Part shown: piece by piece, positions 8,317-21,095 of the stretch
How the letters are laid out: each line of letters starts with the position of its first letter
Numbering within the stretch: position 1 is the stretch's first letter
NCBI RefSeq assembly: GCF_026130165.1
Contig: NZ_JAIHOM010000007.1
Coordinates: forward strand, 1-64,000
Reading direction: 5' to 3'
Source of the DNA: Spirulina subsalsa FACHB-351
Lineage (GTDB): Bacteria; Cyanobacteriota; Cyanobacteriia; Cyanobacteriales; Spirulinaceae
DNA length: 64,000 nucleotides
Notes under the pieces: model-generated
Database searches by the model: none
Told to the model about the DNA's origin: nothing
The model's input: only the letters and a program-made list of their open reading frames with translations
Made by a program: the position numbers and the translations under genes

Positions 8317-8359
8317 TTATTGACATACTCCCCGACCTAAAGGTGCGGGGATTCTGGGA

Positions 8360-9484
8360 TCAAGCAACGATTGCGGGCATTGCCCGTCTAACATCATCTA
8401 ACCCAGCAGTTGATGCCCCAACTGCTTGAATATTCTTAGCGGCGTTTTCATCTCGCCCGTTCACAGATTGGCAGGACGGACAACGCCATTCTCGCACCGA
8501 CAAATCCAACTCTTTAAGGACATACCCACAATGCGAACAGGTTTTCGAGGAAGGATACCAAGGGTCGATGAACACAACTTGCTTGTGCTTCTTTTTGGCA
8601 ACCCATTTTAGAATCTCCAAGAACTCTCCGAAGGCGAGATCGGAAATTTTGCGTCCCCAAATTCGTTGCATCCCTTTCAGGTTCAACGTCTCAAAACACA
8701 GCACATCAAACTTGTCCGTGAGCCACTGCGCCAACTTCCAAAACCAATCAGAACGCCGATTGACAACATCCTCGTGCTTGCGAACTAGGTTCAATCTTGC
8801 CCGTTCCCGATTAGCTGAACCTTTCCGTTTCTTAGAATGCTGACGACTCGCTTTCTTAATGGCATTGAGCGACTGTTTCAGGAATTGCGGTGATTCAATC
8901 TTGGAACCGTCTGAGCAAGTGAGAAACGTTTTCAGACCGAAATCAAATCCAGCGATTCTACTCGTCTCGAATTTGGCTTCAGGTTCAACAACGCTATCAA
9001 CGACTATGACCATGAACAACTCACCTAACAGAGTGCGTTTAATGGTCAAAGTTTTGATTTTCCCCTCAATGGGTCGAGAGTTCCAATACTGATACACACG
9101 ATTCCCGATTTTGATTCGATTGCCACCGAGAAACTTATAGCCGGCTTGCTTGAGAGTGAACGATTTGTATCGTCTGACTTTCTTAAACCCCGGTGGTCGC
9201 ACTCCTTTACCGTGATGTTTGAAGAACAGTTGATACCCCTTCTCAATGCGTTGACAGATATCCTGAACCGCCTGAGAACCAACCAACTGCCAGAAATCTT
9301 TACGCTTTCTGAGTTTAGCAATATGAGCTTGAAGTTTCGCGCCATTCAAATGCTTTCCCCACATACGGTAGTACCGTTTATGGAGTGCAATGCAATGGTT
9401 GTAGATCACCCCAGCCGCATTGATGGTGCGCTTGAGATGTCGATTCCGCTTGCTTTGATAGAGTTTGAACTTCAGAGTTTTCAT
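8360..9484 (-). CDS. tnpB: RNA-guided endonuclease TnpB
   Basis: Full-length TnpB of 374 residues starting at MKTLKFKLYQ; a start 12 codons upstream would overlap the divergent gene and is unlikely. The RuvC catalytic residues all look intact: D181 (GFDFGLKT), E265 (LCFETLNLKGM) and D345 (GRDENAAKNI). A four-cysteine zinc finger sits between the last two (C316, C319, C335, C338). TnpB proteins are OmegaRNA-guided DNA nucleases that help IS200/IS605 elements persist. The last residues after about 355 probably read through the element end. On the minus strand TACAAT lies six bases before the ATG, suggesting a leaderless transcript. Confidence 0.93.
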   Translation of the reverse strand: MKTLKFKLYQSKRNRHLKRTINAAGVIYNHCIALHKRYYRMWGKHLNGAKLQAHIAKLRKRKDFWQLVGSQAVQDICQRIEKGYQLFFKHHGKGVRPPGFKKVRRYKSFTLKQAGYKFLGGNRIKIGNRVYQYWNSRPIEGKIKTLTIKRTLLGELFMVIVVDSVVEPEAKFETSRIAGFDFGLKTFLTCSDGSKIESPQFLKQSLNAIKKASRQHSKKRKGSANRERARLNLVRKHEDVVNRRSDWFWKLAQWLTDKFDVLCFETLNLKGMQRIWGRKISDLAFGEFLEILKWVAKKKHKQVVFIDPWYPSSKTCSHCGYVLKELDLSVREWRCPSCQSVNGRDENAAKNIQAVGASTAGLDDVRRAMPAIVA

Positions 9485-9494
9485 GCTACCATTG

Positions 9495-9511
9495 TATATC
9501 ATATAGATATA
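9495..9511. promoter_or_regulatory. Palindromic divergent promoter/operator between tnpB and the RHH gene
   Basis: TATATC-ATATA-GATATA is a perfect 6-base inverted repeat centred in the 34-base gap between the two start codons. It overlaps a -10-like TATAAT for the plus strand (9510-9515, four bases before the ATG at 9519) and abuts TACAAT for the minus strand (9496-9491). Binding here by the ribbon-helix-helix protein is inferred. Confidence 0.5.
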
Positions 9512-9518
9512 TAATGCC

Positions 9519-9659
9519 ATGAAAAAGAGTGTCTTTTTTCGACTGACTGATGAAGAGTTTGAAAAACTAGAAGCCTATTGCGAATCAACAGGTCGTTCCA
9601 AATCAGATGTTTTGAGAGAACTCATCAGAAGCCTTCAGATCAAGAAAAAGCCGTCCTAG
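9519..9659 (+). CDS. Ribbon-helix-helix (CopG-like) small protein of the IS
   Basis: A 46-residue product. It begins MKKSVFFRLTDEEFEKL, a beta strand followed by a helix, and continues with STGRSKSDVLRELIRS, the second helix of an RHH/Arc/CopG fold. Such proteins dimerise and bind short DNA palindromes. It is divergent from tnpB with only 34 bases between start codons, and the palindrome at 9495-9511 is a natural operator. Its stop codon lies inside the terminal hairpin of the element, so the gene belongs to the IS. A plus-strand TATAAT is so close to the ATG that the mRNA may lack a leader. Autoregulation and control of tnpB are inferred. Confidence 0.75.
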   Translation: MKKSVFFRLTDEEFEKLEAYCESTGRSKSDVLRELIRSLQIKKKPS

Positions 9660-9827
9660 AAGGACGGGGCTTTAGACCCAGTTCCTCGGTAATAATTCTC
9701 TATTCTCTCGTAGTACCCTGTCTGCCAAAAGGGAGAATTTAGCACCCGTGAGAGAAAAACGGAAACTATTGACCAAAAACTGCATCATTAGATCATCGAT
9801 CACCGATTCACTTGTTAATTAGTATTT

Positions 9828-11197: not shown

Positions 11198-11522
11198 ATG
11201 AAGCTAAGGTGTCGATATCGAATCTACCCAACAGACCAACAAAAGAGGCTGATGTCTCAGTTGTTCGGTTGCTGCCGGGTAGTTTTTAACGATGCCTTAG
11301 CTTACTGTTAAGAACAATACCGTGCAGGTAACAAAAAACCTAATATTAAGGAACTTTCCCAAAAGCTAACAGACCTCAAGAAGACGAATTAAAAGCAATG
11401 GTTAACAGAAGTTTCCTCTGTTCCCTTGCAACAGTCTTTGAGAGATTTGGAATAAACTTACTCCAACTTTTTCAAATCCTGTAAAGGACAAAGAAAAGGC
11501 TATAAAGTTAAAAGATGTTAAC
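11198..11522 (+). pseudogene. Decayed tnpB N-terminal fragment
   Basis: Reading from the ATG at 11198 gives KLRCRYRIYPTDQQKRLMS, then FGCCRVVFNDALAYC, the classic N-terminus of TnpB. The frame continues through KKPNIKELSQKL and QQSLRDLE to SCKGQRKGYKVK, but is broken by three in-frame TAA stops (for example C-stop-EQYR, where CAA for Gln is expected). There are no frameshifts. The rest of the gene, including all RuvC residues, is missing. It is an IS fossil, distinct in sequence from the intact tnpB at 8360-9484 and closer to the remnant at 20753-21095. Confidence 0.85.
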
Positions 11523-20752: not shown

Positions 20753-21095
20753 TTACACTCCCTCCCCAGGCAATATCGCTGGTTCCCAACGACAATATCC
20801 GCAAGGCTTCTTTACATTCAGATTCTCTACAGCAATAACTTGGTTTTCGTTGACTATCTTGCGGGATAGTTTGTGTAGAAAGTCCTCACGGCAACGGGCA
20901 GTCTTGCTATGAACCTTAGCTACTTTTTGTTGGGCTTTAGTTCTATTCTGACTCCCCTTTGCCTGTCTTGAGATAGGTTTCTTGGCATAGGTTGAGTGCA
21001 AAATTCCCATACCAACGACAGCATCCAAAGGCCTTGGCGAGAGACGGTTTTTGGTCGTCGGTTGGGTAGATGCGATACTTGTATGCCTTATACAT
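20753..21095 (-). pseudogene. Truncated tnpB remnant
   Basis: Two TnpB pieces in different frames. The N-terminus MYKAYKYRIYPTDDQK with FGCCRWYGNFALNLC starts at 21095 and runs about 48 residues. It then shifts to a frame carrying NRTKAQQKVAKVHSK, REDFLHKLSRKIVNEN and IAVENLNVK, which is the region before and at the RuvC-II Glu. The segment between them, including the first RuvC Asp, is deleted, and the zinc finger and last Asp are missing. It is inactive. The surviving 3' edge ends near the IS hairpin at 20661-20707. Confidence 0.85.

What the first reader, a model, noticed from the sequence alone, without database searches (positions are those of the whole stretch)
9484..9659. Divergent TnpB / ribbon-helix-helix pair sharing a palindromic, possibly leaderless promoter
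An intact TnpB (three RuvC acids and a four-Cys zinc finger) starts only 34 bases from a 46-residue RHH gene on the other strand. Between them is a perfect TATATC-N5-GATATA palindrome. Both -10-like boxes sit four to six bases before the start codons, so transcripts would begin at or just inside the ATGs. The RHH stop lies in the IS end hairpin, so the gene travels with the element. An IS-encoded repressor that times guide-RNA nuclease expression is an under-described arrangement. Also odd: the target-like TTGAC lies on the 3' side of tnpB, whereas in ISDra2 the target motif flanks the left end.
Basis: partly seen in the sequence, partly recalled or inferred. Interest (0 to 1): 0.6.

Follow-up and report, generated by a model that had tools for sequence, protein, structure and literature searches.

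The report
Swappable repressor guarding a TnpB nuclease
A small jumping DNA element in a cyanobacterium-like genome carries, next to its RNA-guided DNA-cutting gene, a tiny gene that looks like an off-switch for it; related elements swap this off-switch together with its matching DNA landing site, which suggests that such elements control how much of the cutting enzyme they make.

Summary
The 46-aa RHH gene is under purifying selection and fills the slot that tnpA fills in sister elements: of 80 named cyanobacterial members of this TnpB clade, 47 carry a divergent RHH gene, 10 a divergent Y1 tnpA, 23 neither, none both. The window's palindrome alone is not significant (524 of 5000 shuffles reach it). 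Comparison makes the case: each RHH subtype has its own repeat at the shared promoter, and within the elements no site was found elsewhere. The window's TATATC-N5-GATATA recurs in 8 of 8 elements whose RHH has the same predicted DNA-contact residues but whose TnpB is of another family. tnpB has a -10 box 5-7 nt before its ATG in 68 of 88 members against 2 of 135 control ORFs, so leaderless tnpB is likely, with or without RHH. TTGAC is the element's own right end. Best reading: an exchangeable RHH repressor-operator cassette that regulates itself and TnpB, and probably the guide RNA. No binding was measured. Nine searches of an open-access library listed no description of it.

The parts
8320..9688 (-). 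whole IS200/IS605-type element (tnpB direction; 1,369 bp), right end TCAA at 8320-8323 (+ strand TTGA), left end at 9688
   Evidence: same ends in 4 left-end and 5 right-end copies of this genome, whose sequences part exactly there, and in clade members by pattern search; sister genome G001 has only 47 bp between matches to 8244 and 9735
9689..9692 (-). TTAC target motif abutting the left end
   Evidence: 4 of 4 left-end copies of this genome; also in clade members, though the pattern used there asked for TTAC-like starts
8360..9484 (-). tnpB, 374 aa, RNA-guided nuclease with D181/E265/D345 and four-Cys zinc finger
9519..9659 (+). RHH (CopG-like) gene, 46 aa, predicted repressor; occupies the tnpA slot; predicted contact residues S4, F6, R8
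   Evidence: PF01402; AlphaFold2 model closest to CopG; median dN/dS 0.089 over 5 pairs of its subtype
9485..9518 (.). shared divergent promoter region
9495..9511 (.). predicted operator TATATC-N5-GATATA
   Evidence: 0 mismatches in 7 of 7 clade members of this RHH subtype and at most 2 in 8 of 8 elements with another TnpB family; within the elements only at the promoter
9491..9496 (-). tnpB -10 box TACAAT, 6 nt before ATG (leaderless prediction)
9508..9513 (+). RHH -10-like box TATATA, 5 nt before ATG (alternative TATAAT 9510-9515, 3 nt)
   Evidence: the strict rule does not score it
9650..9670 (.). left-end subterminal hairpin; contains the RHH stop codon
8320..8488 (-). predicted omegaRNA scaffold (3' end of tnpB plus right end); the guide would begin at 8319 and run downwards
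   Evidence: 22-sequence alignment folds with 16 of 43 pairs showing a change on both sides; part of it is coding; no Rfam match

Best explanation
The 46-aa RHH protein is an element-encoded, CopG-like repressor. It binds the repeat between the two genes, shuts the overlapping divergent promoters and so limits itself and TnpB. The guide RNA is probably cut from the tnpB transcript, so one operator would set both nuclease and guide. The RHH gene, its operator and the adjoining promoter form a cassette that is exchanged among elements and sits where tnpA sits in sister elements; the element itself is then moved by a TnpA supplied in trans. Shown: gene content, boundaries, slot exchange, matching of RHH subtype and repeat, repeats confined to the promoter within the elements, purifying selection. 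Inferred: binding, repression, leaderless transcription, guide from the same transcript, trans-mobilisation.
For: Repeat by RHH subtype, at most 2 mismatches in 70 nt: A1 7/7, A2 7/9, A3 18/22, B 9/11; matches in a wrong class are 4 in all. Same contact residues S,F,R, distinct promoters only: 9/9 with the window's TnpB family, 8/8 (five genomes) with another family, 2/80 with other residues; a viral locus found later has 1 mismatch. Arms are more alike than spacer and flanks for S,F,R and R,S,R. Within the elements sites lie only at the promoter; none in left end+RHH or tnpB+right end. At least 38 class changes on the TnpB tree; in independent tree pairs the repeat follows the class (A3 6.9 of 8, Y 7.5 of 9). 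dN/dS medians 0.09-0.15. Fold closest to CopG bound to DNA, probability 0.98 but E 0.16. [quoted passage not shown] TnpA-like genes sharing the left-end hairpin are in this genome (intactness not tested).
Against: No binding, expression or 5'-end data. The window palindrome alone is within chance. For R,D,R the outer arms are also two outward -10 boxes, and its motif matches 11/35 and 3/49 promoters of other RHHs. For K,T,R the rule holds in 19/20 with the window's TnpB family but only 2/5 outside it, and its second arm (0.74) is hardly more conserved than the spacer (0.70), while the left flank, the RHH start, is 0.83. Sign tests on supported branches miss 0.05 for A1, A2 and B (medians 0.125, 0.25, 0.0625). 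23 of 80 clade members have neither RHH nor TnpA, so RHH is dispensable. TnpA-bearing sisters also have an inverted repeat at this promoter (10/12), so a repeat there need not mean an RHH. RHH and repeat move as one block, so part of their matching is plain linkage.
Confidence: 0.75

Rival explanations
1. The RHH is a transposition accessory, like NikA or TraY for relaxases: it marks the ends and recruits a TnpA acting in trans, and its promoter site is only autoregulation.
For: The element lacks tnpA; NikA-like and TraY models are among the weak Pfam matches; RHH and TnpA exclude each other in the slot.
Against: No operator-like site in the left end+RHH or tnpB+right-end parts in any of the four subtypes scanned (whole sites only, half-sites were not scanned); NikA-like is below its gathering score. 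23 of 80 clade members have neither gene.
Confidence: 0.08
2. RHH and TnpB act as an antitoxin-toxin pair: RHH loss frees TnpB, which harms the cell and keeps the element.
For: RelB-like antitoxin models are among the best NCBIfam matches; several antitoxins are among the structural matches.
Against: The best is below cut-off (25.8 against 50 bits). At 46 aa there is no room for a toxin-neutralising tail (inference). The genes are divergent, not an operon. Many sisters have TnpB without RHH.
Confidence: 0.06
3. The RHH is a captured passenger, and the palindromes are merely two outward -10 boxes or inherited linkage.
For: TTGTA..TACAA arms coincide with -10 boxes; the palindrome alone is within chance.
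Against: A3 and B repeats are direct repeats upstream of the -10 box. For S,F,R and R,S,R arms outlast spacers and flanks. Purifying selection. Repeats switch with RHH class within one TnpB clade and, for S,F,R, persist across TnpB families.
Confidence: 0.11

Closest known systems
IS200/IS605 family, IS605 with divergent tnpA/tnpB (IS605c of PMC9956272) and ISHp608 (recalled)
   Same: TnpB clade, subterminal hairpins, TTAC at left end, TCAA at right end, divergent gene upstream of tnpB
   Different: the divergent gene is an RHH regulator, not the Y1 transposase
IS1341 group (tnpB without tnpA)
   Same: no tnpA in the element
   Different: carries a second gene with its own operator; for 18 IS1341 elements the survey PMC9956272 (section 3.2 read) reports only one structure
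CopG / Arc type RHH repressors
   Same: Pfam RHH_1, size, predicted fold, repeat at its own promoter
   Different: lives in an IS and faces an RNA-guided nuclease gene; binding not tested
TldR (nuclease-dead TnpB transcription factors; PMC13418256, passages)
   Same: links TnpB to transcription control
   Different: here TnpB keeps its catalytic residues and is the regulated party

Membership tests
IS200/IS605 family | TnpB with RuvC D/E/D and zinc finger | tested here: met
IS200/IS605 family | subterminal hairpins and fixed cleavage-type tetranucleotides | tested here: met
   hairpins near both ends, TTAC and TCAA at the points where own copies diverge and by pattern in the clade
IS200/IS605 family | own Y1 transposase (IS605 type) | tested here: not met
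   none divergent to tnpB and no match to the clade's Y1 profile in the window; so the tnpA-less, IS1341-like branch of the family
IS200/IS605 family | mobility | tested here: met
   several copies with different flanks; element absent between the same genes in a sister genome, though the exact empty site is not resolved
CopG/RHH_1 repressors | RHH domain | tested here: met
   PF01402 above gathering score; 10 of 16 aligned members match it at E 0.01; CopG is the best structural match
CopG/RHH_1 repressors | specific binding to own promoter | not testable with these tools
   only comparative support
type II antitoxin (RelB-like) | curated model score and adjacent toxin in an operon | tested here: not met
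   25.8 bits against 50; the RHH gene ends in the left-end hairpin, so no gene follows it within the element
relaxosome-type accessory (NikA/TraY) | sites at the processed ends | tested here: not met
   0 whole sites outside the promoter within the elements

The most novel reading that the evidence does not exclude
Many cyanobacterial tnpA-less TnpB elements are governed by exchangeable RHH repressor-operator cassettes that took the place of tnpA. Two ribbon residues (positions 4 and 6, with R8 fixed) predict the operator across unrelated TnpB families, and one operator sets the dose of both nuclease and guide RNA from a leaderless transcript. The incompatible operator types would let different element families in one cell be controlled separately.
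Probability: 0.48. Interest if true: 0.75.

Novelty: new variant of a known kind. Interest (0 to 1): 0.63.

Why it matters
TnpB is the ancestor of Cas12 and is thought to keep its transposon in the genome by cutting empty sites; how an element limits so dangerous an enzyme is open. A 46-aa repressor with a readable operator, swapped between elements like a cartridge, would be a direct and testable answer, would bear on how tnpA-less elements persist, and would give small matched repressor-promoter pairs for cyanobacteria.

Tried and rejected
TTGAC as an inverted target: rejected; it is the right end. Palindrome as evidence by itself: rejected. Rfam for an omegaRNA: no family reached its threshold in the window. 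Profile search of PDB sequences with the RHH alignment: only two weak matches to chains named F4132-2 and T32-15-1, of no use. RHH-side leaderless start as a general rule: not supported outside the window's subtype. RHH next to TnpBs outside this clade as a general rule: 1 of 38 loci chosen by similarity to the window TnpB; a few of these lack the upstream part. Non-cyanobacterial relatives: the two plasmid loci read (Geoalkalibacter, Rhodothermus) show no RHH; other phyla were not searched for the pair. A TATAG-N7-CTATA rule for Q,N,R: rejected; 21 of 93 promoters of other RHHs match it too. Of 36 viral RHH loci, 3 are close divergent pairs with TnpB (L343, L347, L348) and 12 have the RHH 650-900 bp away; the latter were only looked at. 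Literature: (nine accepted searches); no paper listed describes an RHH gene paired with tnpB; two likely papers are not held.

Rows dropped: of 105 clade loci, 11 were left out of the motif counts (three viral loci 46-53% alike and eight re-fetched relatives, some duplicates or degraded) and 6 more had the same 40 nt upstream as another, leaving 88; the tree used 85 with at least 300 aa. Of 132 RHH loci 66 had no divergent TnpB N-terminus and 12 of the 66 pairs were duplicates. still counted some loci twice (103 rows, 97 distinct promoters); one search repeats it on distinct promoters, and its counts are the ones used. In that set five rows have a TnpB too broken to place; of the R,D,R rows, three of four such match the R,D,R motif. 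RHH profiles were built from these loci, so class assignment is not independent of them. The list was capped; I read 30 loci and 60 further places from it. In one search, 34 of 59 relatives had an RHH match; many of the 30 loci read had no TnpB beside it.

Full report
WHAT IS THERE. The window lies in a 279-contig, 5.26-Mb draft genome; the 80 named loci closest in TnpB are all from cyanobacteria. The pair sits in one element. Its right end, GGGGAGTATGTCAA on the tnpB strand, stops at 8320; its left end starts at 9688, right after TTAC (9689-9692). In this genome there are four left-end copies (window, C173, C268, C278) and five right-end copies (window, C274, C201, C175, C41); their flanks differ from exactly these points on. 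Six of the seven extra copies run into a contig end, as expected for a repeat in a draft; the seventh is a 90-bp piece. A pattern search finds the same ends in clade members, but its patterns asked for TTAC-like and TCAA ends. A sister genome of the same genus has 47 bp between matches to 8244 and 9735, where the window has 1,490 bp, so the element is absent there; 121 bp of flank are missing or unlike too, so the exact empty site is not resolved. The RHH gene is inside the element and its stop is in the left-end hairpin. TCAA is also the commonest right-end cleavage site named in a survey of 39 IS elements (16 of 39; PMC9956272, abstract and section 3.2 read). That TTAC and TCAA are the sites of ISHp608 is recalled.

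THE TWO GENES. TnpB has all three RuvC acids and the four cysteines, and so do 48 of 48 RHH-bearing clade members aligned. The RHH protein passes Pfam's RHH_1 cut-off. AlphaFold2 (mean pLDDT 83.8) gives two helices after an N-terminus without secondary structure in the monomer; the nearest solved chains are the CopG repressor bound to DNA (probability 0.98, TM 0.72, E 0.16). Median dN/dS is 0.089 in the window's subtype and 0.098-0.149 in the others (1 to 14 pairs per subtype). So the RHH gene is a real, selected protein.

THE SLOT. A scan of named genomes with the TnpB alignment kept the best 80 of 244 relatives. The gene divergent to tnpB is RHH type A in 39, RHH type B in 8, a Y1 TnpA in 10, none recognised in 23, and never RHH plus TnpA. 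Some of the RHH and TnpA genes counted are truncated. On a tree of 85 TnpBs the six classes need at least 38 changes (5 is the least possible; shuffled mean 50.7). The regulator and tnpA are therefore swapped in and out of one position. In this genome separate TnpA-like genes end in the same left-end hairpin with the same last residues KPS (read by eye; one on the same contig C113 matched the Y1 profile). A TnpA in trans may thus be at hand; whether one is intact was not tested.

OPERATORS. In 88 non-identical promoters, counted as at most 2 mismatches within 70 nt of tnpB: TATATC-N5-GATATA in 7 of 7 A1 (the window's type, all with 0 mismatches); TTGTAC-N11-GTACAA in 7 of 9 A2; direct repeat GCCGTCA-N4-GCCGTCA in 18 of 22 A3; direct repeat CTACCC-N5-CTACCC in 9 of 11 B; GTAGAT-N11-ATCTAC in 10 of 12 TnpA elements. 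Matches in the wrong class: A2 and Y motifs in one A1 each, A1 and B motifs in one 'none' element each. Shuffled rates are 0-1.25%. In one search the sites within the elements are all in the promoter stretch and none in the left end plus RHH (1,295-3,966 bp per subtype) or tnpB plus right end (8,190-25,740 bp); the flanks outside hold 1 to 3 sites per subtype, as chance would give. Column identity: S,F,R arms 0.88 and 1.00, spacer 0.67, flanks 0.52 and 0.72 (16 sequences); R,S,R arms 0.90 and 0.83, spacer 0.60, flanks 0.36 (9 sequences); K,T,R arms 0.95 and 0.74, spacer 0.70, flanks 0.83 and 0.45 (23 sequences), so K,T,R shows it only for the first arm; R,D,R had 3 sequences, too few. Independent tree pairs go the same way in 6.9 of 8 (A3), 5.5 of 8 (B), 7.5 of 9 (Y), 4 of 4 (A1) and 3 of 5 (A2), almost never the other way; the median sign test is below 0.05 only for A3 and Y.

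A CONTACT CODE ACROSS TnpB FAMILIES. RHH repressors read DNA with alternating residues of the N-terminal ribbon (recalled from CopG, Arc and MetJ). Here these are positions 4, 6 and 8, the last always R in 12 of 12 aligned. On distinct promoters: RHHs with S,F,R have the window's operator in 9 of 9 cases with the window's TnpB family (0 mismatches) and in 8 of 8 with another family (0-2 mismatches; five genomes), against 2 of 80 for other residues. K,T,R: 19 of 20 and, outside the window's family, 2 of 5; 5 of 72 others match, and the six rows concerned are A3-like RHHs that are truncated or have one of the residues changed. R,D,R: 6 of 8, plus 1 of 1 in another family and 3 of 4 beside broken TnpBs; but 14 of 84 others match, because its outer arms are also -10 boxes and the S,F,R operators share them. 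Q,S,R: TAGCAA-N12-TTGCTA in 3 of 5 (L005, L081, L274), 1 of 92 others. A viral locus found later with S,F,R has the S,F,R operator with one mismatch. Because RHH and operator move as a block, linkage explains part of this; the arm-versus-spacer contrast of S,F,R and R,S,R and the promoter-only sites are what point to binding.

LEADERLESS tnpB. A -10 box (at most 1 mismatch to TATAAT, T-A-T core) ends 5-7 nt before the tnpB ATG in 68 of 88 members, 2 of 135 control ORFs of the same loci, and 2.25 of 88 shuffled. The control starts are the first ATGs of ORFs of at least 200 aa and were not verified, which makes the control look lower than it may be. The box is there in RHH-A (32/38), RHH-B (7/11), TnpA (8/12) and empty (21/27) elements, so it belongs to tnpB, not to the RHH. 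In 45 of 88 an in-frame stop precedes any other start; in 43 a longer start cannot be excluded (in the window the ATG at 9520). In the other TnpB family the same kind of cassette lies further upstream (gap 51-55), leaving room for a leader. On the RHH side a box 5-6 nt before the ATG is found in 5 of 7 of the window's subtype and in none of the A2, A3 and B rows scanned.

GUIDE RNA. The last 181 bp of the element align in 22 loci and fold into a shared structure with 16 of 43 pairs changed on both sides; part of it is coding, so codon constraint adds to this. It matches no Rfam family at threshold. TnpB can cut its omegaRNA out of its own mRNA (PMC10278001, passages). If so here, one operator sets both nuclease and guide; this is inference.

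MECHANISM. Most likely: with little RHH both promoters fire; RHH dimers fill the two half-sites (centres 11 bp apart in A1, A3 and B), cover the -10 or spacer region, and hold TnpB and its guide low. Entry into a new cell or loss of RHH would give a burst of TnpB. Binding, repression and the burst are inferred.

KNOWN OR NEW. The element belongs to IS200/IS605, in its tnpA-less branch, and the protein to the RHH_1/CopG family. Nine accepted searches of an open-access library (listings read) and seven papers opened (passages of six, abstract and one section of PMC9956272) showed no account of an RHH gene paired with tnpB; two central TnpB papers are not held and may mention it. On cyanobacterial plasmids some of the matching RHH genes are annotated as CopG family, while the closest one, on a Nostoc plasmid, has no gene in PLSDB's incomplete table. 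I call it a new variant of a known kind.

Noticed in passing
L169, L190, L194, L195, L212, L239, L241, L244, L246, L103 (upstream of tnpB): TnpA-bearing sister elements have their own inverted repeat GTAGAT-N11-ATCTAC, mostly starting right at the tnpA ATG, in 10 of 12 promoters. What binds it is unknown; TnpA autoregulation or a hairpin are possible.
   Followed up: partly
window 11207-11308 (+) and 20807-21092 (-): Remnants of two further TnpB genes: an N-terminal piece and a broken copy in two frames.
   Followed up: no
own genome C171 (L005): A second, unrelated RHH-tnpB pair lies in the same genome; its RHH (Q,S,R) faces a promoter with TAGCAA-N12-TTGCTA, but the tnpB that aligns starts 261 bp away, as if the original tnpB start had been broken.
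   Followed up: partly
G004 contig C2 (L102, L130, L131, L132 and others): One relative has 34 matches to this TnpB, fragments included; the four read have neither RHH nor TnpA beside tnpB. High copy number without the regulator may be no accident.
   Followed up: no
12 of L362-L378 (viral contigs): Near-identical RHH genes lie 650-900 bp from a TnpB-like gene in opposite orientation; not the same arrangement.
   Followed up: no
own genome, L015-L036: The left-end hairpin of this element is shared by several other IS200/IS605-type elements of the genome, some ending a TnpA-like gene with the same KPS stop.
   Followed up: partly
L167, L223, L286: Three R,D,R RHHs keep only the right half-site GTACAA and share a different left part (CCSGG-like, by eye), perhaps a further operator type.
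   Followed up: no
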